This document shows positions 26,922 through 64,000 of a stretch of DNA of 64,000 nucleotides, piece by piece. Under the pieces are notes generated by a model that did not search any database, was not told the DNA's origin, and saw only the letters and a program-made list of their open reading frames with translations. The stretch covers positions 620,001-684,000 of the forward strand of contig BQMF02000142.1 of assembly GCA_027922465.2 (NCBI GenBank), given 5' to 3'. The DNA comes from Turritopsis dohrnii. Its lineage: Eukaryota > Cnidaria > Hydrozoa > Anthoathecata > Oceaniidae. Each line of letters starts with the position of its first letter. Position 1 is the stretch's first letter. The position numbers and the translations under genes were made by a program.

Positions 26922-27001
26922 TATTCATCAAATTAGTGGAATGTCTAAAAACGTGAAGGCTGTCACAAACAAAATGCAAGTTTTTCTACAGAGGATGGAC
27001 G

Positions 27002-33948: not shown

Positions 33949-33950
33949 AT

Positions 33951-38739: not shown

Positions 38740-39519
38740 ATACCATGTAACTTTGTATGGGAATGACCATGTTACTTCGTATGGAAATGATTGCACCATA
38801 GCTGTTGTTGTGGTCAATGCAAAGCAACTCTATCATATTTATTATGTTACATTAAGTATTGATGATATATAAAAAAAGTGTTGAAAAGGTGTTCAATTAA
38901 ACATTTTTACTTTTTGAAGATTAATAGTTGTTTTAATCGATTAGTCTATGCTAAACTGAAATCACTAAAAGGTTTCTCAGATCTGTCAACATTTGTGAGA
39001 GAAGCATGGTTTGGCTTTATTAAAACAATTTATTTTTATTTTGAAGTTTGAAGATTGCTTATAACGACGACATTCAGCGACAAATCTAGAAGGTAGTCAA
39101 AACTTATGGAGAAGCGCATTAACATAATTCGTGAATTCAACCTATATTACCAATGGGATTATCTGCACATTTTTCTGTTTTGGTTAAATTGCTAACACTC
39201 TCCTACATAAATTGCGACTACCTTCTAGATCCGCCGCTGACATTACTCATTTTATATTTAATGTACTTTATATGTGTTGTCAATATTAACCCATGCATCA
39301 AGTTGATTTGATCGACCCTTGTTGAACTACTTATGATATCACAAATGCTTTGACTGCAATCATTTTCTTTTAATGACGTCTTAAATGAAATTACAATTTT
39401 ATGACCTTTTTGTTGTTGATACTTTTCATCTTCAATTCTTTTTCTTTCCCTTTTGCCAATAATGATAAATAATTATCATTTAGATGTAAAAACTAGAATA
39501 CAATACCACAATCACACAA
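38740..39519. other. Spacer between the two death-fold genes
   Basis: It contains the TIR element 39075-39239 and AT-rich DNA, with possible polyadenylation signals near 38870-38910. No gene was seen. Confidence 0.5.
39075..39239. mobile_element. Small TIR element with ACATT target duplication
   Basis: The inverted ends share TCTAGAAGGTAGTC, with outer bases CAGCG. The right end reads CTAGATCCGCCGCTG. The direct repeat ACATT lies at 39070-39074 and 39240-39244. It is of the same type (CAG start, 5-bp duplication) as 5998-6152. A lone related end is at about 1761-1779. Confidence 0.65.
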
Positions 39520-40570
39520 TGGAAGGAGAGGTATTGTATATTTCATAACAATAGAATCACTTTAACCTGGCTTTAACAGCTTTGTGCTGTTTGTTTTACT
39601 TATCATATATTTTTAGACTACGACTCTCCTGTGTTATCGCACCGCACAATCTTTACTGTTGAATAACCAACATGAAAGACAAAAACTGTTCAAACTTTCG
39701 CAGAAGATCTTAGCAGTATACCTTCCACACTATGAAAATCTTGAAACAGTGAACTGTGAAACTTTGGAAAATATTCTACTGGCTGCAACCAGTAAGAAAG
39801 AGCCATATTTGACAGAAACTGACTTTAGATTGATTGCAGAAAGTGTTGGTTTTAATGAGTCTGTGATACATTTGGGTAAGAACTAATACCTTTTGTGTAG
39901 CGATGGTGTAGTGGTTAGTACCTTTGAGTGCGACCGCTGCGACTCGTATTCGAGTCCAGTCATGTCGTATCTCAATACACCATTCCGATGCGCTTTAAAA
40001 GCATTAGGAACCATCGACTGACTGCACACTGGTCTTCGGGCAAGTTAGAGCAATGTTATACGTATCTCTGGCGGTAAGTCAACTAATAGTTGCAAGTCGG
40101 CGGGTGGAAGAACCAACCATTACGGATGGAAATCCAAGGACTAAAAACTCCCGTTACTTACTTGCTTTTGAAGCTCTGACGATGCTTTCATGGATCATGA
40201 TTAAAATGATATTTTTTCTGTTGTAGATGAGAAGCTTTCATTATTTGTTCAAAAACATTGGGAGATGGGACAACAATGGGAAGAGCTGTTGTCCGACATT
40301 GGCCAAGAAATGTCACTTGAGGCTGCTGATGACTGGAAAAAGTTGCTTCAGTGCGTGATTATGTCCCTACCATATACATACCGTGATGGTGTGATGCTGC
40401 TGAAAGAGGCTGCTGCTGGTGGCAATGTCATTGAAAATTTTTTCCTTGGATGGACCGCAATTATCAGTAGTCACCTCAAGCATGGACAACAGATTTTACA
40501 CGGACTTTTACTTGGTTGTCGAGTGTGTAAAAGAGAAGATCTCTTACTGACTGTCACTGGTATGACGTGA
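39520..40570 (+). CDS. Small helical protein related in style to the upstream death-fold receptor, 3 exons
   Basis: The proposed exons are 39520-39531 (ATG GAA GGA GAG then GTATTG), 39617-39875 and 40227-40570. Phases fit and give 205 codons with a TGA stop. The product is all-helical and has no signal peptide or membrane span. Its C-terminal block ('DDWKKLLQCVIMSLPYTYRD' then 'KEAAAGGNVIENFFLGW') has the same spacing of Trp, Leu-Leu, Tyr-x-Asp and Gly-Asn as the last death-like block of the gene just upstream. A tandem duplicate reduced to a cytoplasmic adaptor is therefore plausible. The first exon is the weakest part of the model. The gene could also be the 3' part of a longer transcript. 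Confidence 0.5.
39893..40180 (+). mobile_element. tRNA-derived SINE in intron
   Basis: The A box is TGGTGTAGTGGTTAGTACC and the B box TATTCGAGTCC, at tRNA spacing. A body of about 200 bases with no tRNA similarity follows. The body differs from the other SINEs in the window, so it is a separate family. Confidence 0.65.
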
Positions 40571-42804
40571 TAGAAGACTTTTGTTCTGTTTGAACTACAT
40601 GCTGCATTATTTTTGGTCCACCATTCAGGGTGTTAATAACGGAAGTTTATAATGATGAGAGATGGTTCTTTTGAAACTTATAGTAAATTATCAGTCTTAT
40701 GACATAATTAAATCTCATCACACTGATTCATCAAACAAAATCTTCACTGTTCATCCCCTGCTTTTGAAGTCATGTTTTGTACTAGATTGCTGTAAACGAA
40801 AACTGAAGAATCATGGGTGTGTACCAAATGAATGGTTGCTGCAAGTGCATCAAGGTACGAATGCATGTCACATCAACCTGTTATATAAAAGATTTTAAGA
40901 AATTAAAACGAGCTGGAGATTTTGAGTTGATGTTTTGAGGGGTTTCCTCTTCCAGGGGGAGGATTTAGTTGCTCATGTCTGTATCTCAGTTTTCACAGGG
41001 TCAAAACTTGAGAACATGCTAAGAACATCAAAAGGCTTTTAGTTTTGACATTTTCAATTTTTTAACAAACTAAATTATTCAATTCAGTATATTAGTAGTA
41101 TAAATTAAGTGGAAAAAGTTAAGAACATCGCAAGGCTTTCTTGATTTTCGGTGTTTTTATAAAAAATAAAGCGTGTAAGGGCCATGGTTGTTCTTATCTC
41201 GTGGAAAAATTTAACATTAACAGACAGGAATCGTTTATTGCTCTCATTTCATCGAGAACCTAAACACAGTATTTGCATTTGTGTTTAGATTTTATTTTAG
41301 ACTCGCAAACCCACAGGGAAGTCAAATAGTGAATTCAGACATTTTATTAAGCCATGGTGCAGCGCATTCTGTTGGCGAGCACTGTGTATTATATATTCTA
41401 CAGTAGATATGTTTTATGCAACATCAAAAAACAATTTTTCGTGTATTGCATGAAACATCGAAAAACACATCGAGGAGGCAAGGTTGTGCTATTTCATTTC
41501 GTTTCTCTACCTTGGTATGTGCAAAACTGTCAAATCAAAATATAAAAGGTTCAGCTTTGAATTATTTCTTTAAAATGTTTTGTGATCTAAAATATGGCGT
41601 GCTTGTTGTTGCGTGCGACAAATATTGAGGTACTTTTGTGAAAATTAATTTTTGAATATTTAATGCTTTTGATTTGTTTTTTGTTAGTGATGACGTATGA
41701 GACAAAGAACAGTAAGTAATTATTGAGTTCCTTCTTAACCTTCACCTGGTGAAATACATTTAACAATGTTATTATTTTTCGAGAGTGGTGTTGCAGCATA
41801 AGCAGTGACTGACTTAGAGAGAAAGTGATGTGTTAGGTGAATTGTGTGCAAAATGCAGGATGTGAAGTGAAAATTAGTCTCTCAGATAGGAAGCGTGGAG
41901 AGTCGTGGTGTTGTGTTAGTGCAGGGGGTGCGGTGCAGTATAAGTGTATGGTGGGGTGCATAGTCCTGTTCTTGTGTCCTCCTTGTCAGTAGTGCTTTTG
42001 TATCAGTGTGATGCGCAAGGTTGATGTCTCGTTTATTAATAATATAGAAATTATGATGTCTAAGTAAATTAGAAGCTAAAAATGTGCAATAAAATGAGAG
42101 AAGTCTTTCATAGTATGTACAAGGATGTGTGAAAAAAACGCGTGTATGAGTTTGCCAAGACAAAGGCAGGATTGTAGGTCCTTCATCAGGAGCTGTCACC
42201 TACATTTGCACAATGTCAGTTCGTTTCTGGTGACCTATGGTGCCACGGTCTATCAGCTCTACGAACTACTCATACTTTTGGCAGGGGTTCTTGTATATAC
42301 TATAGGTGACTTGGGAGGACGGGGAGACAAGTGATAGAATTAAAAAACTTACGTTTAGGTAGCTGTGCTTGACGCGTCTGCTTATATCAAGAAATAAAAT
42401 CTTTCTGTTGTTTTTTGTTTGTTTCACCGTGTCTATGGTGCGAAATTCGAATGACGTGAAATACAGTTAACAATGTTCAGGTTTTTTTTGTAAATGTTTC
42501 GACATGCCTATAATCAACCATGTGCATGCCTAAAAGTCGTTCTTTTTGTTTTTAGTCACGCAATACCAATATTTGAACGAACAATTGGACAGTTGACTTT
42601 GGATATCCTTGTAGCTCTTCGAAAGAAAGACTTGTGATTTCAATACATATTCCATTCCCTGGAACATTTGGGAAGAGCTACAACTATCTAATCGCAACTC
42701 TATTGTTTTGTGATGCACTAATTACTTTGTTACGAGTTTTTCTGAACTGAAAATTGATTAGGGACAATTTGTGTTCATTGTCATCAAATGATCAATTCAA
42801 GAGT
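40571..42804. other. No gene recognised
   Basis: Several short open frames are present on both strands (for example 41882-42199 minus and 42125-42334 plus), but they overlap each other and show no domain. No repeat structure was clear. Confidence 0.4.
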
Positions 42805-42918
42805 CCTCTGAATTTAGGTCGGCACTCGGAAAAAGCCGACCTTTAAGCGACGCAAAATCTCAAAAGCCGACCTGAAATTGCTATATTTTGCCGACCTATC
42901 TTAAATTAAATTCAGAGG
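42805..42918. mobile_element. 114-bp foldback element
   Basis: CCTCTGAATTTA at the left end is exactly inverted at 42907-42918. Inside, GCCGACCT recurs in both orientations. It is related in wording to the inner inverted repeat of the element at 18467-18840 (GGCCGACTT...GACGCAAAA). Confidence 0.6.
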
Positions 42919-43148
42919 GTTCTGAGCGTCTCTTCTAGCAAAATATTTACAAACATGTCTCGAAAGATCTATAATCGATATTCGAACTGAAGTTCAGATG
43001 ATGTATTGTTTTCGTGCATATACAGGTTTGTTAGTGAATGTCCTAAACTGCACAAGCCTATAGCTGCTAGAGGAAAAATTTAATTTTGCAATTTTTAACT
43101 ATTGATAGATGATTATTACAATGTGTAAGCTATAGGCTTGTGTAACTA

Positions 43149-43629
43149 GGGGCCATTCAATAATTACGTCACGCTAAGGGGAGTGAGTGGTTCTTTCTGA
43201 TTTTCGTGACGCAGCGTGACGGTAAAAAAAGGGGATGGATAGTACTTAGTTCAAGTCACGATATAAAACATTTTCGATATAAAGTATTTTTTGTATAAGT
43301 CAAAATAAGGAAGTTGTTTTCCGTTTTAACGCAATCTTCTTTTATAGTTTGCAATGTAAATAGTGCTCGTGTTGAATTCGAATGTTTCGAATGTCAAAAA
43401 TACATTCCATGTTTGTTTGTTTGTTTTTGTTTTTTTGTTTTTGTTGTTTTGTTATTGTTTTTTTATTATTTATTTATTTTTTGGGGGGGAGGGGTGGTGT
43501 CTCTGCCAAGCGTGACGTCACGCAAGGTGGTTATGTTAACCATTATATTAAAATGTGACGGAGCGTGATGAGGGGGGATGGGGGGTTGAAACAGCAAAGT
43601 TAGCGTGACGTAATTATTGAATGGCCCCC
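43149..43629. mobile_element. TIR MITE, GGGGCCATTCAATAATTACG ends
   Basis: The first 29 bases from GGGGCCATTCAATAATTACG are inverted at 43601-43629 with one added G, and TA flanks both ends. Similar 'GGCCATTCAATAATTACGTCA' ends are common in invertebrate MITEs. There is no transposase. A G-rich and T-rich patch at 43415-43495 lies inside. Confidence 0.75.
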
Positions 43630-43786
43630 TAAAATATATATCAGAATATATATTTGTATGATATGTACATAAGTCAGGGTTTTTCTTCATTATATTGACT
43701 ATATTTTATAGTATTCTATGATACCATATATTATAGAGATGCTGAGCTATATATTTTAAAGAATTCTAATGGAGAAGAATACCTGA

Positions 43787-44158
43787 TTACACGTAATTAA
43801 CAGGCGGACTATTTAACGCGCCATAAGTTAACCCGGTCACGAATTAATTCTAAATTCTGTGTATAATAATTCTGTGCTTAAATTAACACGGTTCAAGGAC
43901 AGTAATTTTTAAATGGTATCAAATTAACACGGATTTTGTATTTTTGACTCTTGATTATTTTAAATGATTTAGAAGATGTATTTTCGAATACCGAAAGGAA
44001 ATCAAAAGCTTCAACGTTTACAGAGTAACCAGAGTCGTAATATTTTACCTACATAAGAATAATAAAAAACATTAAATGGGCGGTTCAATTACGCGGGGTA
44101 CAAATTAACACGGCTTCAATTAACGCGTTAATTAATTCCCACGTTAATTTCGTGTAAT
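43787..44158. mobile_element. TIR element, TTACACG ends with AATTAACACGG words
   Basis: TTACACGTAATTAAC at the left is inverted as GTTAATTTCGTGTAA at the right. The interior repeats AATTAACACGG and AATTAACGCG several times. No target duplication was resolved and there is no coding capacity. Confidence 0.55.
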
Positions 44159-49847: not shown

Positions 49848-50412
49848 CTAAAAATATGGAGAGGAACACACAGGTTTGTGGATCAAGCAAGCAAAAAAAT
49901 CATTGGTGGAACGGTGAGTTTTCAAGTTAAAAGAAGAACGGACGAAATAAAATGCTGTCCAAATCTTGAAAGAAACATATAACTGTGGTCACACTGCATC
50001 AAATTGGAAAAATGGAAAATCTATTAAAGACATTTTTGAAAAAATCATGCTGAAGGGAATGATGTTCAAATCCAGTACTTTATCAGCTTTAGAGATAGGA
50101 AAGTGCCGATTATAGCGCAAAATTGTATCCCTCATAAACATAACATGGAATCATATGATTTCGGGAATTTCCCTACTATAGCTAATATTATCATCTAAGA
50201 CCTTTGTTTTCATAACGCGATACGAGTTATGAAACGTGTTATTTTGATTACATAACAAATAACAACACGTAAGCAGTTTTAATTATTATTATATAACCAC
50301 AAATTACTCATAAATGTAAACAATTAAATATCTCATAAAAATGTAGTAAAAAGCAGTTTGTAGTAGTTTCATTTTTATAACATAAATGAGCTAACAATAC
50401 ATATAACATACA
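49848..50412. other. AT-rich spacer, possibly the left end of the Maverick
   Basis: No gene was found. A perfect 9-bp hairpin (TTTCATAAC, 9-base loop, GTTATGAAA) at 50208-50234 looks like the gene-end hairpins inside the Maverick. The element may therefore extend left of the SINE. Its terminal repeat cannot be recognised without the other end. Confidence 0.4.
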
Positions 50413-50420
50413 GATCAGCG

Positions 50421-50754
50421 TAGTCTAGTGGATAAGAACGCTAACTTGTAACAACAAGGTCGTGTGTTCGAACCCCACGCAGTTCGTCTGAGAGGAAGTA
50501 TATATACTTCGGCGGTTGTAGATCTCTCATGTTCTGGTTGTAAAACTTGCATGAGTGCGCACTTCCCCGCAGTTGTGTTGAATATATCGCGGAATGGTTA
50601 GCATTGCGTCTGGGTGATTTATCATTGTCAGGTTTCTCTGGTCCATAGAGACATTCAGGTTACCGTCATTTCGATCGAAATTCAACAAACGCCAGGGCTT
50701 AGAAGTGTTAGCATGTATCCACAATGCCGGCTATAATTGCAAACTACATGCGCT
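50421..50754 (+). mobile_element. tRNA-derived SINE with 8-bp target duplication
   Basis: The A box lies in TAGTCTAGTGGATAAGAACG and the B box is TGTTCGAACCC. A body of about 250 bases with no tRNA similarity follows. The direct repeat GATCAGCG occurs at 50413-50420 and 50755-50762 and fits a target duplication. The right copy contains the stop codon of the adjacent Maverick gene. The tRNA part lacks a paired acceptor stem, consistent with the first bases belonging to the target. Confidence 0.6.
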
Positions 50755-50756
50755 GA

Positions 50757-51917
50757 TCAGCGAAATACATACCATATACTAAACATCGTGGTAATCGCTA
50801 AAACCAAAGCTATTTTCTCTTCTTCGTGAGATGGGAGTGAATCTGTTTGACTCACTACTCTTTTGTGAACTTCCTTTTGTGAACTTTTATTTTTTGTTTG
50901 TGTTGGAGAGCTAGTCACTTTGGGTGAAATATGATGCTCTTGCATAATATTAATCATTTTGTTTCTTCCGAGGCTCAAGTTGTCATTAGATATGAGAATT
51001 TTATTATTATAACCAGACACTCCCGACTTGATGTTTAGATTCATGTCACTAGGTAACATGTAAATACCTTGTCCAACAGAATAATCAACTTTGCTTGAAG
51101 CGTAATTTAAAGTATCTTGATAACGTTTAATGTCATCTTGAATATCAACTCTGCGGTTAACAATGTCTTCAAAGTTGTTCATAAAAACTCTTTGAGCTGT
51201 CAAAGAGCTTGAATTATTACCTAAAATAGAAGAACGAGCTGAGGCTTGCGAACTAAGAACAAGATAAGCATATGCTCTAACACTCTCTGAAATTTTTACA
51301 AGACCTGTTTTTGTAAAGCCTTTAGATTTTTCTATAATCCATCGTGTCATGGAGTCGTCTGTGAAATAACTCAGACCTGGCGTTGGATAGTCTCTACGTC
51401 TTTTTTGATACGAGCTGTAAAAATATTGCCCTTTGTATTTTTTAGGATCAGAATCGACACCATATTCACTACAGATTTTTAAAAACTCTTCTTTGTTATA
51501 AGGATTATCGTATTGGTTGAAACTATCTTCAAAAGGTAGAGGTGTCTGCAGACGCTTAATGATTCGTCTAATATGATAATAGACGTGAAAACGATATACT
51601 GCTCTAATCATAGGAGTAGAGCGACCTTCTTTCAGATGTTCAGAACTGACCCCACAAGCACTTGAAGCACACCAAGTGATAAAATTGAGTTGGGTTTGCC
51701 ATAATTTAAATGGTTGTTCCTGCCAAATTTTCATGCGTTTTTCATTTTCATCCATTTCGTAATTAGTAAAAATATTGGGAAAGCTCGCAGGAAAAGAACC
51801 ATTTTCAGAGACAATAATTGTTTGTTTGTATAAATCTTTAGAATTCAATATCTGAAGGTATTGTCCTCCATTTGGCTTATAAAGCGCATTAGGATTATAT
51901 TTAAAAATGTTCTGCAT
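50757..51917 (-). CDS. Maverick protein of 386 aa with C-terminal membrane anchor, unknown function
   Basis: This intact ORF starts at an ATG 38 bases from the start of the divergent penton candidate. It is rich in Tyr/Asn/Gln and has no catalytic motif that I know. The N-terminal part ('FKYNPNALYKPNGGQYLQIL') is followed by a basic helical region ('RAVYRFHVYYHIRRIIKRLQ') and a hydrophilic Ser/Lys linker. A single hydrophobic helix ends the chain at about residues 367-385 (IALVLAITTMFSIWYVF). A tail-anchored virion or membrane protein is the likely role given its place next to capsid genes. The stop codon lies in the GATCAGCG target duplication of a SINE, so the original 3' untranslated region is displaced. 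Confidence 0.8.
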   Translation of the reverse strand: MQNIFKYNPNALYKPNGGQYLQILNSKDLYKQTIIVSENGSFPASFPNIFTNYEMDENEKRMKIWQEQPFKLWQTQLNFITWCASSACGVSSEHLKEGRSTPMIRAVYRFHVYYHIRRIIKRLQTPLPFEDSFNQYDNPYNKEEFLKICSEYGVDSDPKKYKGQYFYSSYQKRRRDYPTPGLSYFTDDSMTRWIIEKSKGFTKTGLVKISESVRAYAYLVLSSQASARSSILGNNSSSLTAQRVFMNNFEDIVNRRVDIQDDIKRYQDTLNYASSKVDYSVGQGIYMLPSDMNLNIKSGVSGYNNKILISNDNLSLGRNKMINIMQEHHISPKVTSSPTQTKNKSSQKEVHKRVVSQTDSLPSHEEEKIALVLAITTMFSIWYVFR

Positions 51918-51955: not shown

Positions 51956-52516
51956 ATGTATATCACAGTAAATGTCGCAAAAGGTGAGAAGACCATATAT
52001 CTATCTTACCCCATTCAAAATATGGATGGCTCAAAAGAAATTGCATTGCTTGATATGTTTGCAGACAATGTTACGTATGAAATAACCACAGAGTTGAAAC
52101 TGAAACTGTCTGCTGATGGGAAAGCTGAAAAGTTGGTACCTCAAGGAACATTCACGAGCAGGGAATTGAATGCCTTTTTAGCAGGTGCCTTTTTAGCAGG
52201 TGATGTAAAACTTACCTCATTAGACAAAGACCCTCGAATAATCAAAACAAATAAGCTCGCTAAAATAACCAAAATTAATTTGCATCTCTCTGAACTCGAT
52301 AACACTCAAAATCTTGAGAATGGAAAGCTAAGTGATATTTTACTAACCTATCACATGGTTGAATATAGTGACTTCACACATGTTCAGCCTAAAAACCCTC
52401 AATACAAAAAATTAAAAGATGGTGTATTTCAGTCTCTCACGTTGAAACTCACAGATCAGCATGGCAATATGCTAAAAGAAGACCTAGGAAGAACCGTTGT
52501 TTTGCACATCCGCTAA
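51956..52516 (+). CDS. Candidate penton (single jelly-roll minor capsid protein)
   Basis: This 186-aa protein is rich in beta-strand-like segments ('MYITVNVAKGEKTIYLSYPI' at the start and 'LTLKLTDQHGNML' near the end). It has no membrane span or enzyme motif. It lies directly upstream of the hexon candidate and packaging ATPase, the place taken by the penton protein in Polintons, and its size fits a single jelly roll. The function is inferred from order, size and strand pattern, since I cannot run a structure search. A 15-bp exact tandem duplication at 52172-52201 duplicates five residues (AFLAG) in frame, probably lengthening a loop. Confidence 0.6.
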   Translation: MYITVNVAKGEKTIYLSYPIQNMDGSKEIALLDMFADNVTYEITTELKLKLSADGKAEKLVPQGTFTSRELNAFLAGAFLAGDVKLTSLDKDPRIIKTNKLAKITKINLHLSELDNTQNLENGKLSDILLTYHMVEYSDFTHVQPKNPQYKKLKDGVFQSLTLKLTDQHGNMLKEDLGRTVVLHIR

Positions 52517-52561: not shown

Positions 52562-53878
52562 ATGGAGTATGGAAAGAGGTTAAATCCAGAACGTTCACTT
52601 AGAACTGCCCGCGGTGTAAAAGGTTCTCGTCAAAAAGTAATTGTCACACACAATCCAAGTGAGATTGATCAAAATCAGCTATTATTGGTTAGGTTTCCAA
52701 ATTTAGGAAGCGATGATGTTATTATCCCAGGAACAACGAATCTAAGTTTTGATATTGAACTCGAGTCGAAAGCTGACTCAAAAAGAACATTGGTCAGTAA
52801 CATTGGGAGAGCTATTATTAAAAAGTTGGCTGTCAAGTTCGAAGGTAACGAGATATTGAGTATCGATGACTTTGATCTTTTTGGGTGTTACAGAGATTTA
52901 TGGTTAACCAAGTTTGAAAAGAGAAACGCGATAAGACAGGGTATCATCATCGATGATGGGTGTACAGAGAATTGTATGAAATTGAGGATTGGTGCTTCAG
53001 ATAAAGACACCTCTGATGCAGAAGACAAAGCCATTGCTGACACCTATAAAAACAAGTTTGTCATTCCACTCGACTTTGAGATGCTAGATAGTACTATTCC
53101 ATATTATCAAGCAGGTTTAGGTAATAGGCTTTGCTACGAGATCACATTTAACGACTATAACCGAGTTATTTATTCTGACCCTCCAGATACTGCCGCAGGT
53201 CAAAAACGTAACCCAGATGGTAAATACAAAATATCTAACATCTCACTTGAATATGAGCTTGTGACACAACCCACGTTGGCTAGACAAATCGCTTCTGAAT
53301 ATCAAAACATGGCTTTGCTCTATGATAGGATTTTGCGGCACAGACAAATTAGAGTAAACAAGTCAGACACAACGTGGAATTGGTCATTCAACACACCTGC
53401 CAAATCTTTGAAGGGTATTTTAGTTCTATTTGAAGAAGAAAAATCCTACAAACGAGAAACCTGTAAATTCTATAATCCAAAGATCGAAAAGGTATCTGTC
53501 ATCGTCGAGGGTAAGCCTAACCAACTTTTTGCTCAAGGGATGCAGCCGTTTGAACAATACAATGAGATTTGCAAGTATTTTGCTGAAGGAAAACCAAAAG
53601 ATAATAGTGTCGGCGAAAACCGAAAGCGCTTGGGATTACATGATGTAAAAGTCTCTGATTACTTGACAAACAAGTATGCTCTATGGTTAGATTTCAGAAC
53701 AATTGATGAGAATGCCTTGCATGGGACCGGTCGAAGGATTGAAAATGCGAGTGAAGGCATCACTTTACAGATTGAAAAGACCGCTGAAACTGCAGGAAAC
53801 TTAAACGCATATATATATCTAATAATGGACGCTCAACTAAACATACAAAACGGTCAATTTATGTCTGCATTATATTAG
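52562..53878 (+). CDS. Candidate hexon (double jelly-roll major capsid protein)
   Basis: This intact 438-aa ORF has no membrane span. It has many alternating beta-type segments ('LLLVRFPNLGSDDVIIPGT', 'NLSFDIELESK', 'KFVIPLDFEMLD') and a C-terminal 'LNAYIYLIMDAQLNIQNGQF'. Size, position between the penton candidate and the packaging ATPase, and similarity in style to hexon-type proteins of invertebrate Polintons support the major capsid role. Such proteins form trimers that tile an icosahedral shell. It stops only 4 bases before the ATPase ATG, so the two are probably on one transcript. The fold itself is inferred, not seen. Confidence 0.7.
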   Translation: MEYGKRLNPERSLRTARGVKGSRQKVIVTHNPSEIDQNQLLLVRFPNLGSDDVIIPGTTNLSFDIELESKADSKRTLVSNIGRAIIKKLAVKFEGNEILSIDDFDLFGCYRDLWLTKFEKRNAIRQGIIIDDGCTENCMKLRIGASDKDTSDAEDKAIADTYKNKFVIPLDFEMLDSTIPYYQAGLGNRLCYEITFNDYNRVIYSDPPDTAAGQKRNPDGKYKISNISLEYELVTQPTLARQIASEYQNMALLYDRILRHRQIRVNKSDTTWNWSFNTPAKSLKGILVLFEEEKSYKRETCKFYNPKIEKVSVIVEGKPNQLFAQGMQPFEQYNEICKYFAEGKPKDNSVGENRKRLGLHDVKVSDYLTNKYALWLDFRTIDENALHGTGRRIENASEGITLQIEKTAETAGNLNAYIYLIMDAQLNIQNGQFMSALY

Positions 53879-53882
53879 TAAA

Positions 53883-54488
53883 ATGGATACACTTTACATG
53901 AAAGAGCCTCACACAGCATTATTCGTTGGACCAACATCGTGCGGTAAAACGGATCGTGTTGTAAAATTATTAGAAAATGAATACTTTGATCACTTTGATT
54001 TCATCGTGATTATATGTCCCACCTTGAGGTGGAATCAGACTTACAGAAATCGGAAGTGGTTCTGGAATGACAGCTATGTGATTTTAATTGAGCCGGAAGG
54101 ATCTTTATATGAATGGATTAAGAAAATAGACTTTTTCTGTGCCGGATATAAAACCTTATTTCTGATTGATGATATAATAGCTGATGAAAAATTGGACAAA
54201 AAGAGACAGCCTTTGCTCGAGTTGGCAATTAGTGGTAGACATCGAAATCATTCGCTATGGTTACTTACACAATCATACACGGCTATACCTAAAAATTTAC
54301 GACGGCAAGCTAAAATGTTATATGTGTGGTATCCAAAAGATAGAAACGATCTAGCCACCATTCATGAAGAGAACGATGTCATTGAATCGCAAGAAGAATT
54401 GAAAAATGTCAAGGAAAAACTGAAAGGAGGGAAACACACGTGCCTAGTCATGAGAATGGAACACCCAAGAACGCACGTGATTTGTTAA
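53883..54488 (+). CDS. FtsK/HerA-type genome-packaging ATPase
   Basis: This 201-aa protein has a Walker A motif GPTSCGKT at residues 16-23 and a Walker B FLIDD at 93-97 preceded by hydrophobic strand residues. A conserved 'LWLLTQSYTAIPKNLRRQ' (about 125-142) has the polar sensor residue (TQS). These are the hallmarks of the short A32-like packaging ATPases of Polintons and related viruses, which pump DNA into preformed capsids. It immediately follows the hexon candidate. The Cys in the P-loop is a common variant. The length is typical for the group and the gene is complete. Confidence 0.93.
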   Translation: MDTLYMKEPHTALFVGPTSCGKTDRVVKLLENEYFDHFDFIVIICPTLRWNQTYRNRKWFWNDSYVILIEPEGSLYEWIKKIDFFCAGYKTLFLIDDIIADEKLDKKRQPLLELAISGRHRNHSLWLLTQSYTAIPKNLRRQAKMLYVWYPKDRNDLATIHEENDVIESQEELKNVKEKLKGGKHTCLVMRMEHPRTHVIC

Positions 54489-54527: not shown

Positions 54528-54799
54528 ACTATAAGACTACTGTAAGACTCCTATAAGACTACTGTAAGACTCCTATAAGACTACTATAAGACTACTATAA
54601 GACTCCTATAAGACTCCTATAAGACTCCTATAAGACTACTATAAGACTCCTATAAGACTACTGTAAGACTGTTATAAGACTCCTATAAGACTCCTATAAG
54701 ACTCCTATAAGACTACTGTAAGACTCCTATAAGACTACTGTAAGACTCCTGTAAGACTCCTATAAGACTACTGTAAGACTGTTATAAGACTACTATAAG
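54528..54799. repeat. 11-bp minisatellite between convergent Maverick genes
   Basis: About 24 tandem copies of AAGACTCCTAT/AAGACTACTGT/AAGACTACTAT stand directly after the hairpin. The right edge reaches into the 3' end of the PPP1R15-like gene. There are no spacers, so it is not a CRISPR array. Confidence 0.92.
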
Positions 54800-55019
54800 A
54801 GAATAATTTACGTCTCAATACAGGTTCTAGAATTTTACCAATATGTTTAATCCTCGATTCAAAGCGTACTCTATCAACAGCAGCCTCTATCCAGTTACCT
54901 CTACGAGATTCACAAGCAGAGATATAATGGACCATTACTATATCATTAAAAGTAACCCTTTTTGTATCTTGATGGGAAAATATAATATCATCATCTGAGG
55001 ATTCATCATCATCGGACAT
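54768..55019 (-). CDS. PPP1R15/GADD34-like protein phosphatase 1 regulator
   Basis: This 83-aa ORF starts with an acidic patch (MSDDDESSDDD). It then has the PP1 docking motif RVTF at residues 21-24, 'DIVMVHYI' at 26-33, a Trp at 43 in 'RRGNWIEAAVDR', and 'RFESRIKHI' at 52-60. The order RVxF - V.V.Y/F - GxW - DR.RF..RI is that of the conserved C-terminal core of PPP1R15 proteins. In animals this core brings PP1 to phosphorylated eIF2alpha and restores translation. Compact versions of this core occur in some large DNA viruses of animals. The inferred role here is to counter an eIF2alpha-kinase response. The last 10-12 residues derive from the minisatellite, so the C-terminus may have been altered. 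Known from the family: the motifs. Inferred: the activity. Confidence 0.75.
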   Translation of the reverse strand: MSDDDESSDDDIIFSHQDTKRVTFNDIVMVHYISACESRRGNWIEAAVDRVRFESRIKHIGKILEPVLRRKLFSYSSLITVLQ

Positions 55020-55030: not shown

Positions 55031-55043
55031 TAAACAATGTTTA
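55031..55043 (-). promoter_or_regulatory. TAAACATTGTTTA leader motif before PPP1R15-like gene
   Basis: Read on the minus strand it is TAAACATTGTTTA, 11 bases before the ATG at 55019. It differs by one base from the motif before the integrase and SAP genes. Confidence 0.5.
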
Positions 55044-55130
55044 TTTATTTAACAATGTTAGAATATATCAACTTTATATTATTAAACATCATCATCCTCT
55101 TATCATTATTTTGTCTTAAAAAATACCTCT

Positions 55131-55137
55131 CTCTAAT
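55131..55137 (+). promoter_or_regulatory. CTCTAAT leader motif
   Basis: CTCTCTAAT ends 4 bases before the ATG at 55142. It supports that ATG, rather than the one at 55037, as the true start. Confidence 0.45.
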
Positions 55138-55141
55138 AAAA

Positions 55142-55678
55142 ATGGCGGAAACAGCGATCGATAATTTAATCAACCAGAGTTATGATGTTCCGGGTGAATT
55201 TCCACCTTCAGATGGTAAAAGACAAAAATTACTCGAGTGTGTCTTAATTGGAAATAGCAAGCTATACTTAGGGAAAATGTACACGGAAGAGCAAATTAAC
55301 AAACTCAAAGATGAAGAGGTAGAAAAACTTTTTAGTATTTACGAGGCTAAACTACCAGGTCAAATGGTAAAATCACTGATACGCATTTATTCGACGAGGG
55401 CTTGTGCAACGTTAGGAATAAACAATCAAGAAGCGCTGAGCAATGACCTGGAAACTGACCCCTTCTTAAACTCTGCTCTTCAAAGATTTACATGTGACTT
55501 ATATTATAAATTCGGCCCATTATTAGCACCACTCAGTGTTGCACTTATTACTGGGATGCATTATATCAATGAAAGAAATTTAAATAAATCCGATGATAAT
55601 ATAAATACAGCAGATAATAAAAATGTCAGAAGAACAGACTCCCATTCAAGTGACAACGAAGAACCCAAAAAAGGTTGA
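55142..55678 (+). CDS. Maverick helical protein, unknown function
   Basis: From the ATG at 55142 the product is 178 aa and begins 'MAETAIDNLINQSYDVPGEF'. The frame is open further up to an ATG at 55037, but that ATG lies inside the leader motif of the divergent PPP1R15-like gene. The 35 extra residues would be a hydrophobic AT-rich stretch, so the shorter form is preferred. The protein is mostly helical ('YTEEQINKLKDEEVEKLFSI'), has a mild hydrophobic segment near residue 135 (GPLLAPLSVALITGMHYI) and an acidic/basic tail. Its last 56 bases overlap the next gene in another frame. The family is not recognised. It may be a virion component, judged from neighbours and leader type. Confidence 0.75.
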   Translation: MAETAIDNLINQSYDVPGEFPPSDGKRQKLLECVLIGNSKLYLGKMYTEEQINKLKDEEVEKLFSIYEAKLPGQMVKSLIRIYSTRACATLGINNQEALSNDLETDPFLNSALQRFTCDLYYKFGPLLAPLSVALITGMHYINERNLNKSDDNINTADNKNVRRTDSHSSDNEEPKKG

Positions 55679-55967
55679 AGCGGGTAAGAAGTTGGCGGAA
55701 TACAACCGTAAAAAACGAGAACAATTAAAACAAGTGTCACCTCAAAAAGAAGTGAAGAAGCCCGATGACTCTCTCACCAAACCAAATGAACAACCTATGA
55801 ACTACACCTATGGTGTAGGTGGAATAATAGCTCTCGGTTTAGTTGGTGGATTTGCTTATTTTGTGTATAAAAAGAAAGAGCAAATATTACCCCGTGGGTC
55901 ACCATCCACCCCCCTTCCACAAAAATCTAAAATACCGGTGAAAATCAATAAACATGAAATGGAATAA
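55623..55967 (+). CDS. Small single-pass membrane protein of the Maverick
   Basis: This 114-aa ORF overlaps the preceding gene by 56 bases, suggesting translation from the same transcript. The N-terminal half is strongly basic ('NPKKVEAGKKLAEYNRKKRE'), a pattern I recall from other invertebrate Polintons. A transmembrane helix follows at about residues 65-82 (GVGGIIALGLVGGFAYFVY), with a short Lys/Pro-rich C-terminal tail. The basic half could bind DNA or lie against a membrane face. It may be a core or membrane component of the particle. The function is unproven. Confidence 0.7.
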   Translation: MSEEQTPIQVTTKNPKKVEAGKKLAEYNRKKREQLKQVSPQKEVKKPDDSLTKPNEQPMNYTYGVGGIIALGLVGGFAYFVYKKKEQILPRGSPSTPLPQKSKIPVKINKHEME

Positions 55968-58731: not shown

Positions 58732-59715
58732 TCACCAACCTTGCACATAATCAGGAGGTAGCTCTGTATCCTCAGGTATCAACATCAGCTCTTCATTTAC
58801 AAAAGATCGTTCAGGTCCATCTTGAAGGTAATACATTACACGGTTACCTGGTTGATCTATTACCTCACTCAATCTATATGTCCTCTTTGACCATATTCTA
58901 TCTGTTGCTCTTTTTCGATGGTCATCGTGCTCTTCACCCGGTTGCAATAGATATCTATACAAACCATCTTGAGGTAGCTCTACTTCAGGTGGATAGCTCT
59001 CTCGTTTAGCGAGAGGCACCTCTTTCAATTTGATGGCATCTTTCGGTTTCATACCGATCATCTGAGTCTTTGTATCGTTTAATCTACCCACAAGTTTATA
59101 CAAATATTTGACCCATGTAGATGATACCTTTTCCGAATCATTCAGTTCTTGAGCATCTTGTATTTTGAATAAATTTTCAGCAAGTATCTTGTTCAATGCC
59201 TCAACAAAAGCTGTATGAGTATGCTTATATTTTGTAGTTGCTCTTTTAATTTCAACATTATTCTTCTCCAACAATTTTGATACATCCGCTTTGAATTCTG
59301 AACCGTTATCACATTGAAATACTTTTGGATAAGTTAACGGTCCAACCTTGTAGATGTCTTCAATCATAGCGGCAACCTCTTTCGCTCTCTTAGTATTCAA
59401 AGGTCGAGCCACCTTATATCTGGAAGCAACATCGATACCAGACAAAATGTACTTGTATTTATTACCATATAGCATATCACTAGGCATATACAATATATCA
59501 AATTGATGAATTTCATTCGGTTTAGTCACCTCATAATGTGGACGTTCGATCCTTTTCGGTGCCGGTAGATGTACCTGCCACAAAGCTTGTTTTGATAGCC
59601 ACTTCTTAATTTGCTTCGGTTTGAAGCCAAATCCTCTTAGATTGCGAACAGCCTTTTGTCCTTTCCATAAGTTTTGAGGTTGATAGTAAATCTCTTGAAG
59701 TTTAGTGTCTGACAT
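58732..59715 (-). CDS. Retroviral-type integrase (rve), Maverick
   Basis: This 327-aa enzyme has a complete catalytic triad: D73 in 'IHQFDILYMPS', D136 in 'VFQCDNGSEF' and E172 in 'HTAFVEALNK'. The spacing of 35 residues between the second Asp and the Glu is the D,D35E signature. 'SGIDVASRYKVARPL' between them is typical of the RNase H-like core. The C-terminal part (about 270-327, 'DRIWSKRTYRLSEV') resembles the small beta-barrel or chromodomain-like tail seen in Polinton integrases. No N-terminal HHCC zinc finger is visible. It joins the element's linear DNA ends to host DNA. It is divergent from the SAP gene across a 106-bp spacer holding two facing copies of TAAACGTTGTTTA. Confidence 0.95.
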   Translation of the reverse strand: MSDTKLQEIYYQPQNLWKGQKAVRNLRGFGFKPKQIKKWLSKQALWQVHLPAPKRIERPHYEVTKPNEIHQFDILYMPSDMLYGNKYKYILSGIDVASRYKVARPLNTKRAKEVAAMIEDIYKVGPLTYPKVFQCDNGSEFKADVSKLLEKNNVEIKRATTKYKHTHTAFVEALNKILAENLFKIQDAQELNDSEKVSSTWVKYLYKLVGRLNDTKTQMIGMKPKDAIKLKEVPLAKRESYPPEVELPQDGLYRYLLQPGEEHDDHRKRATDRIWSKRTYRLSEVIDQPGNRVMYYLQDGPERSFVNEELMLIPEDTELPPDYVQGW

Positions 59716-60253: not shown

Positions 60254-63200
60254 ATGACTACTAAAAATACTGTTGTTGAATTAAAAGCTCTTGCAAGAGA
60301 ACGCGGTCTACATGGCTACTCAAAACTCAGAAAAGCTGAGTTGATCGAATTATTAGCAAACCCACCTGTCCGACCTGTTCCACTACCAAGACCGATGAGG
60401 TCTAACCGACCTGTTCCACCACCAAGACCGATGAGGTCTAACCGACCTGTTCCACTACCAAGACCTGTTCCAATTATTCCTACCCAACAAGATATGGATT
60501 TGTTTGAGCAGCAAGAAATGACAAAAAGTAGACCTCAGGTAAAAAGCAAGTTGAATGAATGGAGAGATTGGTTAATAAATCATGTACCTAAACCTATTCG
60601 TGAGAAAGTGAGTAGCGCTTATAGAGAGATGAAGAAGAAGATTCTCAATCTCTACAAGAGGAAGAATGATGAAAAAGATGAAAAATTAGTGAAACCAAAA
60701 GCGTTTGTCCCCATTGAAACGGCGTTTGAGGGTTCTTACAAAAGGTTCAAGATAAACTCAGATGGAAAAAAGGACGTTGATTCGTTTCTCGAAAAGGTTC
60801 GACCCATTTTAAGTGATCTGATTATGAGAGAACTCAAAAACAAAAAATCAATAAAAATTCAAGCAACTGTGTGGATCAAATGGAGAAAAGAAGATCTATC
60901 CAATCCTGAACCAACAATCTACGTCGATAAGGCGTTCAATAGCAATATGGAAACAATTCATAGTGAAAGTGATATATCTGATGTTGTCAATAAGATGTTC
61001 AATAAGATAATCGAACAGGTTGAAAACCCCGCGTTACCTCAATCCGGCTTTGTTATCGATAAGATTTTAAATATTGATGTAGACTTTCACAAGCTAAAAT
61101 TAACGAGAGGCAGCTCTTACTTGCCTTTACCTGAGAATTTCAGTGGGAAACGATCTGTTATCAATCCACATAACGAAGATGATGAAGAGTGCTTCAAATG
61201 GGCTGTTACTGCTGCTTTGAACCACAATGAGATTAAGAAAGATCCGCAAAGGATAACGAATCTCAAGAAACACATTGATAAATATAATTGGGACGGTTTA
61301 TCGTTTCCAATGGCGCTAAATAAAATAGATTTGTTTGAGAGAAGGAACCTTGATATCGCTGTGCATGTTTTGACAAAAGACGAGAAAGAAGGTATCTATA
61401 TGTGTCGTAAGTCGAAGCATCTTGATCGCAAAGAAACGGTTGTTTTGTTTTTACTATGTGAAGAGGAAAAGAGACATTATATAGCTGTAAAGAACTTGAG
61501 TGGTGTCTTGAGTAAGGTCAACTCGAATCATGAACATAAGGAGCATTATTGTTTGAATTGTCTCAATGGATTCTCAAGTGAGAAAACACGAGATGAACAC
61601 TTTCAATATTGTAAAAATAATGATGTTGCTAAGATTGAGATGCCAAAGGAGGGTAGCACCGTTAAGTTTCATGACGGTCAGTACCAGCTCAAAGCTCCTT
61701 TCATAATGTATGCTGATTTCGAAGCTTTGTCAAAAGAGGTTTGTAAAGAACCGCGTAGCGTTATTGGATCATCCACTAAAAAGGTTGGTATACATATCCC
61801 CACAGGCTTCTGTTGTTATAGCAAATTTGCTCATGGTGAAGTTTCAGACCCTCTAACGCTTTATCGAGGTGAAGACTGTGTTTTACGTTTCGTGGATCAT
61901 GCGGTAGGTGAAGTGAAAAGGCTATACAACATGTTTCCTAAACAAAGAATGCGAGACCTCACATATGAAGAGGAACAGGGATTTACCGATTCAGATAAAT
62001 GTCACATATGTATGAAAGAATTTGAAAAAGATAATATTAAGGTTAGGGATCACTGTCATTTTACTGGTAAATTTCGTGGAGCTGCACATCAGTCTTGTAA
62101 TCTCCGTTACAAAGTGCCTAAATACATCCCGATCGTCTTTCACAATCTGAGCGGATATGATGCTCATCTGTTTATCAAAGAACTAGCCAAACAGTATGGA
62201 GATGAAGGGATTGCCGTCATCGCTGAAAACAAAGAAAAATATATCTCTTTCTCATTGGATGTTAAGGTTGGTGAATATACTGACAAAAATGGGGAGACGA
62301 GAGTTCAAAAGATACAGTTGAGATTCATCGATAGTGTGCGTTTCATGGCTAGTAGTCTGGATAACTTGGTAAACAATCTATCCGACGATCAGTGTAAAAA
62401 CCTTCGAAAATTCTTCAAGGGTGATGAGCAATTCAAACTATTGAGAAGAAAAGGAGTTTATCCTTATGAATACATTGATTCTTTTGATAAGTTTAATGAA
62501 ACTAAGCTCCCACCAAAAGATGCTTTTTACAGCAAGTTGAACATGAAAGGTATCAGTGATGCTGATTATACACATGCACAGAAGGTGTGGAAACACATGA
62601 AAAATAAAAATATGGGTGCGTATCATGATCTCTACCTCAAGACAGACGTTCTATTGCTTGCTGATGTTTTTGAGACTTTTAGGGAAACATGTATAACAAA
62701 CTATAAACTGGATCCTGCACATTTTTACACTGCTCCAGGACTAGCTTGGCAAGCCTGTTTGAAAAAGACAGAGGTTGAGCTGGATCTGTTGTCAGATATG
62801 GATATGTTTCTCTTCGTAGAGCAAGGTATTAGAGGAGATCTCTGTCAGGCTGTTCATAGACATGCTAAAGCTAATAACAAGTATATGGATGCTAAATATA
62901 AGAAGACTGAAGAAAGTAGCTATCTCCAATATCTTGATGCAAATAATCTATATGGATGGGCTATGATTCAGAAGCTACCGACAGGGAATTTCAAGTGGGT
63001 AGATGCTAATAAATTTACCGCTGAATTCATTTCAAAGTTGGCTGAGAAAGATGGTAAATATGGTTATCTTCTTGAAGTTGATGTGAACTATCCTCAGGAG
63101 CTTCATGATTCACATAACGATCTTCCGTTTATGCCTGAGCGAAAGAAGATCAATGGTGTAGAAAAGCTAACTCCATGTCTTTCAGACAAGAAGAATTATA

Positions 63201-64000
63201 TTATTCATATCCGTGCACTTGATCAAGCGCTGAAGCATGGTCTTGTTCTTGAGAAGGTTCATAGAGTACTGAGATTTAGACAAAGTGCATGGTTGAAGCC
63301 GTACATCGATTTCAACACCAATTTGCGTACTAAATCAAAGAATGACTTTGAAAAGGACTTTTTCAAGCTCATGAACAATTCAGTCTTTGGTAAAACTATG
63401 GAGAATCAACGTAAACATAAAGACATACGCTTGGCTACCAAGAAAGAACAATATGAGAAGCTGGTGATGAAACCTAATTTCAAGGGTAGTATCTGTTTCA
63501 GTGAACATTTGATGGCTGCTGAAATGCAAAAGATCAAACTCGTATTGAACAAGCCGATCTATCTGGGACCTACAGTTCTTGATTTGTCAAAGACGATTAT
63601 GTATGGGTTTCACTATGATTACATGAGACCAAAATATGGTGACAATCTAAAGCTCTGCTATATGGATACAGACAGCTTTGTCTACCACATCAAAACCGAC
63701 GACTTTTACAAAGATATCGCCGATGATGTAGCTTTGAGATTCGACACTTCAGCGTACGATGAGAAAGATAACAGACCTTTACCTATAGGTTTGAATAAGA
63801 AAGTCATCGGTCTAATGAAAGATGAGTTGGGTGGTAAGATAATGACAGAGTTTGTTGCTCTAAGAGCGAAGACATATGCATATAAACAGCTAGATGGAAA
63901 AGAAGACAAGAAGTGCAAGGGAGTCAAGAAGTGTGTAGTAAAGAAGACGATGGGGTTTGATGATTATAAGAGATGCTTATTTGATGGTAAGAATGTTTAC
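60254..64000 (+). CDS. Protein-primed family B DNA polymerase, 3' end outside window
   Basis: 1249 codons are open from the ATG at 60254 to the window end. A SAP-like motif lies at residues 8-36 ('VVELKALARERGLHGYSKLR') and is followed by a Pro-rich repeat from a 36-bp tandem repeat. A conserved N-terminal region has 'DDEECFKWAVTAALNHN' and 'EKRHYIAVKNLSGVL', and a C2HC-like finger ('HYCLNCLNGFSSEK') follows. The exonuclease motifs are Exo I 'YADFEAL' (D488, E490), Exo II 'HNLSGYDAHLF' (from 630) and Exo III 'YLKTDVLLLADVF' (from 794). The polymerase motifs are A 'YLDANNLYGW' (D895), B 'KLMNNSVFG' (K1038) and C 'YMDTDSF' (D1138, D1140). The proofreading and polymerase centres are intact. It replicates the linear element using a protein primer. 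It follows TATATATA with a 5' leader of only a few bases. Confidence 0.96.
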   Translation, partial: MTTKNTVVELKALARERGLHGYSKLRKAELIELLANPPVRPVPLPRPMRSNRPVPPPRPMRSNRPVPLPRPVPIIPTQQDMDLFEQQEMTKSRPQVKSKLNEWRDWLINHVPKPIREKVSSAYREMKKKILNLYKRKNDEKDEKLVKPKAFVPIETAFEGSYKRFKINSDGKKDVDSFLEKVRPILSDLIMRELKNKKSIKIQATVWIKWRKEDLSNPEPTIYVDKAFNSNMETIHSESDISDVVNKMFNKIIEQVENPALPQSGFVIDKILNIDVDFHKLKLTRGSSYLPLPENFSGKRSVINPHNEDDEECFKWAVTAALNHNEIKKDPQRITNLKKHIDKYNWDGLSFPMALNKIDLFERRNLDIAVHVLTKDEKEGIYMCRKSKHLDRKETVVLFLLCEEEKRHYIAVKNLSGVLSKVNSNHEHKEHYCLNCLNGFSSEKTRDEHFQYCKNNDVAKIEMPKEGSTVKFHDGQYQLKAPFIMYADFEALSKEVCKEPRSVIGSSTKKVGIHIPTGFCCYSKFAHGEVSDPLTLYRGEDCVLRFVDHAVGEVKRLYNMFPKQRMRDLTYEEEQGFTDSDKCHICMKEFEKDNIKVRDHCHFTGKFRGAAHQSCNLRYKVPKYIPIVFHNLSGYDAHLFIKELAKQYGDEGIAVIAENKEKYISFSLDVKVGEYTDKNGETRVQKIQLRFIDSVRFMASSLDNLVNNLSDDQCKNLRKFFKGDEQFKLLRRKGVYPYEYIDSFDKFNETKLPPKDAFYSKLNMKGISDADYTHAQKVWKHMKNKNMGAYHDLYLKTDVLLLADVFETFRETCITNYKLDPAHFYTAPGLAWQACLKKTEVELDLLSDMDMFLFVEQGIRGDLCQAVHRHAKANNKYMDAKYKKTEESSYLQYLDANNLYGWAMIQKLPTGNFKWVDANKFTAEFISKLAEKDGKYGYLLEVDVNYPQELHDSHNDLPFMPERKKINGVEKLTPCLSDKKNYIIHIRALDQALKHGLVLEKVHRVLRFRQSAWLKPYIDFNTNLRTKSKNDFEKDFFKLMNNSVFGKTMENQRKHKDIRLATKKEQYEKLVMKPNFKGSICFSEHLMAAEMQKIKLVLNKPIYLGPTVLDLSKTIMYGFHYDYMRPKYGDNLKLCYMDTDSFVYHIKTDDFYKDIADDVALRFDTSAYDEKDNRPLPIGLNKKVIGLMKDELGGKIMTEFVALRAKTYAYKQLDGKEDKKCKGVKKCVVKKTMGFDDYKRCLFDGKNVY
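60371..60470. repeat. 36-bp tandem repeat inside polymerase gene
   Basis: The unit CGACCTGTTCCACTACCAAG plus 16 more bases is repeated about 2.8 times in frame, giving the RPVPLPRPMRSN repeats. Confidence 0.9.

What the first reader, a model, noticed from the sequence alone, without database searches (positions are those of the whole stretch)
54768..55019. A PPP1R15/GADD34-like eIF2alpha-phosphatase regulator in a Maverick
The 83-aa ORF carries, in order, an RVxF PP1-docking motif, a V.V.Y segment, GxW and DR.RF..RI, which is the conserved core of PPP1R15 proteins. Viral proteins with this core reverse host translation shut-off. I know of no such gene described from a Polinton. If real, it suggests the element, or the virus form of it, faces an eIF2alpha-kinase defence in an invertebrate.
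Basis: partly seen in the sequence, partly recalled or inferred. Interest (0 to 1): 0.92.

Follow-up and report, generated by a model that had tools for sequence, protein, structure and literature searches.

The report
PPP1R15-like gene carried by a Maverick
A large virus-like transposon present in hundreds of copies in one genome carries a small gene that closely matches the core of a host switch (PPP1R15/GADD34) that turns protein synthesis back on, suggesting that the element, like some herpes, swine-fever and insect viruses, can cancel the cell's translation shut-off.

Summary
Confirmed. The 83-aa minus-strand ORF at 54768-55019 scores 32.2 bits against PF10488 PP1c_bdg (cut-off 26.1) and matches solved PPP1R15B (E 3.7e-6) and viral DP71L (E 2e-5). 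A profile of R15B rows alone gives it 32.3 bits; the best of 20,000 shuffles reaches 11.3. RVxF, the VH 'phi-phi' pair, the arginine-pocket Arg and the Trp, Phe, Arg and Ile reported for the G-actin step sit at R15 spacing.

The element spans 15.85 kb, with 873-bp inverted repeats, rve integrase and A32-type ATPase. An R15 33-mer occurs 409 times in the genome; of 59 copies viewed with flanks, 56 show R15 antisense between ATPase and a 213-aa ORF, the other 3 only the latter.

Function is inferred: probably recruiting host PP1 to eIF2alpha-P. Ten full-text searches listed no such gene in a Polinton. Odd: the ORF has roughly three- to six-fold less synonymous variation than neighbouring genes and pN/pS near 1, so coding selection is not cleanly shown. 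No relative turned up in the protein set or IMG/VR (animal genomes were not searchable); the host's own PPP1R15 was not located.

The parts
54768..55019 (-). 83-aa PPP1R15-core ORF (here called R15)
   Evidence: ORF; homology; other copies
54948..54962 (-). K20-F24, RVxF PP1-docking motif (KRVTF)
   Evidence: sequence; V22 and F24 unchanged in 50 of 50 distinct cores
54927..54932 (-). V30-H31, phi-phi PP1-docking pair at the same spacing from RVxF as GADD34 V564-H565
   Evidence: sequence; GADD34 residues from passages of PMC10743859. V30I in one and H31Y in one of 50 distinct cores
54903..54905 (-). R39, counterpart of PPP1R15B R658 (PP1 arginine pocket), four residues before the Trp
   Evidence: sequence; passages of PMC4394352 and PMC10743859; unchanged in 50 of 50 distinct cores
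54849..54893 (-). W43 to I57, with D49-R50-x-R52-F53-x-x-R56-I57: counterpart of the R15 segment whose W662, F672 and I676 (R15B) serve the G-actin step
   Evidence: sequence and alignments; residue roles from passages
54529..54800 (.). 11-bp minisatellite between the ATPase gene and R15; it supplies the R15 C-terminal tail
   Evidence: tail variants
50091..50963 (+). left terminal inverted repeat (the right one lies outside the window, C142:685936 down to 685081)
   Evidence: 5-base shared flank GCTTT
50757..51917 (-). 386-aa ORF, its C-terminal end inside the left TIR
51956..52516 (+). 186-aa ORF, minor capsid protein by position only
   Evidence: no family match
52562..53878 (+). 438-aa ORF, putative major capsid protein
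   Evidence: 3,493 homologues at E 0.001 or better; Capsid_N only at E 0.047, under its cut-off; model of low confidence
53883..54488 (+). A32-type packaging ATPase
   Evidence: PF04665 E 7e-8, above its cut-off
55037..55678 (+). 213-aa ORF, divergent neighbour of R15 (17 bases between the start codons; a second in-frame ATG lies at 55142)
55623..55967 (+). 114-aa ORF used as an element-count marker
58732..59715 (-). rve integrase
   Evidence: PF00665 E 1.1e-10, above its cut-off
60254..64000 (+). long ORF running off the window, protein-primed PolB by eye (YMDTDS motif, recalled)
   Evidence: Pfam gave only Rho_N and Endonuclease_7 above cut-off, no polymerase family

Best explanation
The ORF is a true, stripped-down member of the PPP1R15 (GADD34/CReP) family carried as a gene of a Maverick/Polinton element. 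Shown: sequence homology over the PP1-docking and G-actin-recruiting core, presence at a fixed place in the copies examined and of its sequence in about 400 places, and few changes at the contact residues. Inferred: when the element is active (its virus-like phase), the small protein is made, clamps host PP1 through RVxF, phi-phi and Arg39, brings in G-actin with W43 to I57, and directs PP1 to eIF2alpha-P, so that translation of element proteins goes on although a host eIF2alpha kinase has been triggered. It lacks the membrane anchor and the long substrate-recruitment region of the cellular proteins.
For: Pfam PF10488 above cut-off. PDB matches to PPP1R15B and DP71L, the latter aligned to query residue 71. 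Shuffle and window controls. Residue-by-residue agreement with contacts named in PMC10743859 and PMC4394352 (passages). All 150 scored copies, of 413 first-look candidates, pass the Pfam cut-off. 149 of the 150 listed copies lack a stop. 409 places with an R15 33-mer at up to 3 mismatches, 0 for the reversed-pattern control. Sampled by ATPase, not by R15: 35 of 38 element places (the window's own among them) have R15 within 2.5 kb. Antisense slot between ATPase and the 213-aa ORF: 36 of 38 loci with both neighbours and 2 with only the 213-aa ORF in view; 20 of 21 further R15 copies with both and 1 with only the 213-aa ORF (the C149 copy is in both sets). Nonsynonymous variants avoid 12 contact positions chosen by me: 3 of 38, all conservative (V28I, V30I, R56K), P 0.019; counted by position, 3 of 27 variable positions, P 0.050; both uncorrected. 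[quoted passage not shown]
Against: No expression or binding data. Among copies pN/pS of the core is 0.83 (31 distinct) to 1.24 (47 distinct), while the ATPase (0.18) and MCP end (0.10) show clear purifying selection, so coding constraint on R15 is not shown by this measure. No relative was found in the protein set or IMG/VR. PMC7615683 (passages) holds that the C-terminal fragment alone does not raise activity towards eIF2alpha, that a separate region recruits the substrate, and that its helix H1 is conserved in ICP34 and DP71L too; I did not look for H1 here, and only 19 residues precede the RVxF motif. The low-confidence model predicts a helix over residues 24-37, not an extended stretch. 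The MCP and PolB assignments of the element rest on weak or by-eye evidence.
Confidence: 0.68

Rival explanations
1. A PP1 recruiter with another job: it binds PP1 (and perhaps actin) through the R15 core but its substrate is not eIF2alpha, for example a capsid, integrase or host chromatin protein.
For: The substrate-recruitment region described for R15B in PMC7615683 (passages) is missing. Positions 27, 29 and 34 vary freely and Gly41 is Ser in 26 of 50 distinct cores.
Against: The match extends past PP1 docking into the W43 to I57 segment, which serves the G-actin, eIF2alpha-specific step in R15 proteins. DP71L, which recruits PP1 to eIF2alpha (PMC5346070, start of abstract in the listing), aligns up to residue 71 of this ORF.
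Confidence: 0.15
2. A captured host exon that is no longer under selection: genuine PPP1R15 ancestry, amplified passively with a young element family.
For: pN/pS near 1. Copies are alike, so a gene this short could stay intact without selection (inference; not modelled). The avoidance of contact residues is only P 0.019 to 0.050, with a residue set chosen by me.
Against: Diversity in the ORF (0.02 to 0.03 per site) is below that of the minisatellite and of 55060-55119 beside it (0.07 to 0.14), though several windows of neighbouring genes are as low. V22, F24, R39, W43, A47, D49, R52, F53 and I57 are unchanged in 50 of 50 distinct cores. R15 beside 35 of 38 ATPase-sampled copies.
Confidence: 0.14
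3. Chance resemblance to a short linear motif; not a PPP1R15 relative.
For: RVxF alone is common among PP1 partners (PMC7615683, passage).
Against: Pfam over cut-off, PPP1R15B and DP71L both matched, shuffle control 32.3 against 11.3 bits.
Confidence: 0.02

Closest known systems
Cellular PPP1R15A (GADD34) and PPP1R15B (CReP)
   Same: Same core in order and spacing: RVxF, phi-phi VH (as in GADD34), PP1 arginine-pocket Arg, Trp, Phe, Arg, Ile. 44% identity to a 45-aa PPP1R15B stretch.
   Different: 83 aa instead of 674 and 713 aa (lengths from a figure legend of PMC10743859). No room for the membrane helix or the substrate-recruitment region; acidic N-terminus; one open frame without intron.
DP71L of African swine fever virus (chain 9nb9_B, 71 aa)
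   Same: Minimal viral R15 of similar size, aligned from residue 17 to 71 of this ORF, including the segment after RF..RI.
   Different: One residue fewer between RVxF and Trp. Belongs to a large free virus (recalled), not an integrating element.
Insect-virus (baculovirus) PPP1R15 homologues and ICP34.5 of herpes simplex virus
   Same: Viral capture of the R15 core. PMC4394352 aligns an insect-virus protein and an HSV-1 protein with R15 (figure legend passage). [quoted passage not shown]
   Different: None is described from a Polinton in what I read. I did not compare their sequences with this ORF.
Maverick/Polinton elements and adintoviruses
   Same: rve integrase, A32-type ATPase, capsid-like ORF, long terminal inverted repeats, about 15.85 kb.
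   Different: No R15 gene reported in the texts searched (term searches; term counts and passages of two surveys). No protease was recognised here.

Membership tests
PPP1R15 family | Match to the curated PP1c_bdg profile above its cut-off | tested here: met
   32.2 bits against 26.1; 150 of 150 scored copies, of 413 candidates, above it
PPP1R15 family | RVxF plus phi-phi plus arginine-pocket residue for PP1 | tested here: met
   V22, F24; V30-H31; R39 at R15 spacing (sequence; passages)
PPP1R15 family | Conserved segment after RVxF (W, D, RF, RI) needed for G-actin-dependent eIF2alpha specificity | tested here: met
   W43, D49, R52-F53, R56-I57; Gly41 before W is Ser in 26 of 50 distinct cores
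PPP1R15 family | N-terminal membrane association and eIF2alpha-recruiting region of the cellular proteins | tested here: not met
   Only 19 residues precede the RVxF motif. PMC4394352 (passages) counts pared-down viral proteins in the family, with conservation confined to the same 70 residues; PMC7615683 finds recruiting helix H1 also in ICP34 and DP71L, which I did not test for here
PPP1R15 family | Binds PP1 and lowers eIF2alpha-P | not testable with these tools
   needs bench work
Maverick/Polinton | Retroviral-type (rve) integrase | tested here: met
   PF00665 E 1.1e-10
Maverick/Polinton | FtsK/HerA-type packaging ATPase (Pox A32) | tested here: met
   PF04665 E 7e-8
Maverick/Polinton | Long terminal inverted repeats in an element of 15-20 kb (size recalled) with a short target-site duplication | tested here: met
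   873 aligned columns at 97.5%, span 15.85 kb, shared flank GCTTT of 5 bases (6 is what I recall as usual)
Maverick/Polinton | Double jelly-roll major capsid protein | tested here: inconclusive
   Capsid_N E 0.047, under its cut-off; AlphaFold2 model pLDDT 38; best PDB sequence match E 0.48, unrelated
Maverick/Polinton | Protein-primed PolB | tested here: inconclusive
   YMDTDS motif by eye in the ORF at 60254; no polymerase family in Pfam at E 0.1 and no PDB match at E 1
Maverick/Polinton | Adenovirus-type cysteine protease | tested here: inconclusive
   none recognised in the 14 ORFs scanned; the 1.9 kb beyond the window was only listed for open frames

The most novel reading that the evidence does not exclude
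The first eIF2alpha-phosphatase regulator known from a Polinton, and one that entered this element family recently and spread through diverged copies by recombination: its synonymous diversity is a third to a sixth of that of neighbouring genes, while residues 27, 29 and 34, which I take to face outwards between the docking residues, change repeatedly and contact residues hardly change. That would be the mark of a fresh arms race between an animal transposon-virus and the host stress response.
Probability: 0.25. Interest if true: 0.87.

Novelty: new member of a known kind. Interest (0 to 1): 0.74.

Why it matters
Polintons are held to be endogenous viruses (PMC11071308, passage), but as far as I know little is established about what they do against host defence in animals. 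A captured PPP1R15 core in hundreds of copies would say that such an element meets an eIF2alpha-kinase response, and it gives a small protein with a ready assay (PP1 binding, eIF2alpha-P, ISR reporter). It would add another kind of DNA virus to those that took this host gene, and the known PP1 and G-actin contacts of R15 make clear predictions for it.

Tried and rejected
Close relatives elsewhere: the ORF against 5.8 billion proteins gave 1 candidate and no hit. IMG/VR scans with the ORF, MCP, integrase, the ORF plus R15B alignment, an MCP alignment, an R15 alignment and a DNA motif gave none. These searches need short exact words or patterns and hold no animal genomes as such, so they do not show absence. 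Of the 11 proteins, one is a human R15B chain; the other ten look at first like short viral homologues, but they carry R15B sequence behind splice-acceptor-like leaders (my reading); I reject them as viral.

Host PPP1R15: a GPWE..A..DR pattern gave 0. A vertebrate-type R15B query scored 150 of 393 candidates, best E 6e-4, and no row stood out as a separate host gene; every one of the 98 loci fetched and by region and tested holds the element R15 core, but the remaining rows were not read. A looser pattern did not complete. So the source gene was not found; this does not show its absence.

RNA structure as the cause of the low synonymous variation: z-scores -0.78 (sense) and +1.44 (antisense), rejected. 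An overlapping plus-strand ORF: the three plus frames over the ORF all hold stops, and no plus-strand ORF of 60 aa or more is listed inside it.

MCP fold: low confidence, not searched further. R15 model: mean pLDDT 60, helices 24-37 and 43-82; of little weight, and the first helix does not fit an extended docking stretch.

pN/pS for the 114-aa and 213-aa ORFs failed (wrong frame chosen; gaps) and is not used.

Full report
What was claimed and what is there. Pfam PF10488 (PP1c_bdg) matches residues 14-60 at 32.2 bits, over its cut-off of 26.1, E 1.1e-7; the only other family listed, a UHRF1 tudor domain, has 13.7 bits against a cut-off of 29.1. By sequence the PDB gives PPP1R15B (E 3.7e-6) and DP71L (E 2e-5); PPP1R15A is weak with the single sequence (0.43) and clear with the two-row profile (5.5e-7). 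That profile contains R15B itself, so its R15B scores are not independent; the R15A and DP71L scores are. A profile of 11 R15B rows without the window's sequence gives 32.3 bits, against 11.3 for the best of 20,000 shuffles and 5.4 for the next best of 1,107 window segments.

Residues. Passages of PMC10743859 and PMC4394352 name the working residues of human or mouse R15. Counted from the motif, the ORF has the same ones: RVxF V22, F24; phi-phi V30-H31, six and seven residues after F24 as V564-H565 follow F558; arginine-pocket R39, four before W43, as R658 before W662; F53 ten and I57 fourteen residues after W43, as F672 and I676; R56 as R595 of GADD34. I recall, but did not see (paper not held), a published eIF2alpha-binding motif in this same stretch. 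The long N-terminal regions of the cellular proteins have no room here. PMC4394352 says that conservation among viral versions is confined to the same 70 residues; PMC7615683 says that a substrate-binding helix, H1, is also conserved in ICP34 and DP71L. I did not test for H1.

The element. Integrase (rve) and A32 ATPase are firm. An inverted repeat of 873 aligned columns at 97.5% runs inwards from window 50091 and from 1,936 bases past the window's end, giving a 15.85-kb element with the 5-base flank GCTTT on both sides. The 438-aa ORF has 3,493 homologues, yet its capsid identity is unproven here: weak Pfam, poor model, no PDB match of note. The PolB ORF shows a YMDTDS motif by eye but no polymerase family in Pfam.

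Copies. The window lies in a 436-Mb genome of 891 contigs. The 150 R15 copies listed (a cap) are 91-100% identical; 149 of 150 have no stop. With the Pfam family as query, 150 of 413 candidates were scored and all 150 pass the cut-off. An R15 33-mer occurs 409 times at up to 3 mismatches, one from the neighbouring 114-aa ORF 521 times, controls 0 and 0. Of 38 loci L001-L038 all 38 have the 213-aa ORF beside R15 and 36 the ATPase, R15 antisense in each. Of 21 further R15 copies in L039-L058 all 21 have the 213-aa ORF and 20 the ATPase; one of these copies (C149) is also in the first set. These were chosen by R15 similarity. To avoid that, I took those of the 150 listed ATPase matches (of 942 candidates) that lie on contigs covered by the printed R15 list: 35 of 38, the window's own included, have R15 within 2.5 kb. 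From the 114-aa ORF, 76 of 97 do; 3 further printed rows beyond C132 were left out. The misses may carry mismatches, since the printed places are exact matches only, or may lack R15. One ATPase-chosen copy that was read (C71) has an intact R15.

Selection. Over 95 gapless core copies (94 places, C149 twice; 4 gapped ones dropped) there are 50 distinct cores, no stop, and 38 nonsynonymous variants; 3 fall on 12 contact positions chosen by me, against 8.4 expected (P 0.019); by position it is 3 of 27 (P 0.050); uncorrected, copies related. pN/pS is 0.83 (31 distinct) or 1.24 (47 distinct), against 0.18 for the ATPase (39 distinct), 0.10 for the MCP end (19), 0.18 for the 71-aa ORF (15) and 0.51 for the 186-aa ORF (13); gapped copies (R15 4, ATPase 7, MCP end 7, 71-aa ORF 0, 186-aa ORF 2) and those with a stop (ATPase 3, MCP end 3) were dropped. 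This does not show coding constraint on R15. But R15 pS is only 0.032 (0.043), against 0.12-0.19 for these genes. The R15 set includes loci fetched without neighbours, so the sets are not the same copies. Total diversity per site is 0.02-0.03 in the ORF against 0.07-0.12 in the minisatellite and 0.137 at 55060-55119; but 55120-55179, partly non-coding, is 0.026, and many windows of the MCP, ATPase and 114-aa ORF are as low as R15, so the oddity lies in the synonymous sites, not in total diversity. Most copies were picked by R15 similarity, which biases this down; the ATPase-chosen C71 copy differs from the window by 5 nonsynonymous and 2 synonymous changes in 72 codons, in line with the rest, but it was among the closest by ATPase. 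R15 distance rises from 0.009 to 0.025 with ATPase distance and then stays at 0.023-0.030. Recent capture and spread by recombination, gene conversion, or an unknown nucleotide-level constraint would each fit; RNA folding does not.

How it most likely works. Shown: homology, place, number, contact residues. Inferred: expression, PP1 binding, G-actin recruitment, eIF2alpha-P as the target, and an advantage in a virus-like phase. PMC4394352 found C-terminal fragments enough to blunt the stress response in cells (passage); PMC7615683 holds that such a fragment does not raise activity to eIF2alpha and that another region recruits it (passages). The literature thus allows but does not settle it.

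Novelty. Searches: PPP1R15 + Maverick 0 papers; Polinton + GADD34 0; Polinton + eIF2 3, none on this by title and abstract start; Polinton + protein phosphatase 1 2, neither on this by the passages seen; PP1c_bdg 1, on ASFV (listing). Broader ones, of which only the listings were seen and not all papers were listed: 20 of 589; 3 of 3; 4 of 4; 25 of 29; 15 of 34. Two surveys of the group (PMC11071296, PMC11071308) hold no eIF2, GADD34 or phosphatase term in the main text. The original adintovirus paper is not held. Viral capture of R15 is known, so I file this as a new member of a known kind, in a kind of virus where I found no report of it.

Noticed in passing
G000 C746: about 24000-44000 (L054, L055): Three R15 copies 7.5 kb apart in tandem, each in a unit running from the 386-aa to the 426-aa ORF; about 1.1 kb is left between units, too little for integrase and polymerase (those two were not searched for).
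   Followed up: partly
window 54820-55019: The R15 ORF has roughly a third to a sixth of the synonymous diversity of neighbouring genes; unexplained.
   Followed up: partly
L039 (C333:6000-14000): A 110-residue R15 frame with the acidic leader repeated three times ahead of RVxF.
   Followed up: no
window 54529-54800: 11-bp minisatellite that varies between copies and changes the R15 C-terminus and its stop.
   Followed up: partly
window 60254-64000: PolB-like ORF with Rho_N and Endonuclease VII matches but no Pfam polymerase match.
   Followed up: no
window 50757-50963 and L059:1075-1284: The C-terminal end of the 386-aa ORF lies in the TIR and is therefore present at both element ends.
   Followed up: no
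G000, 21 of 97 places of the 114-aa ORF: Element copies where R15 was not seen nearby; may lack it or carry mismatches.
   Followed up: no
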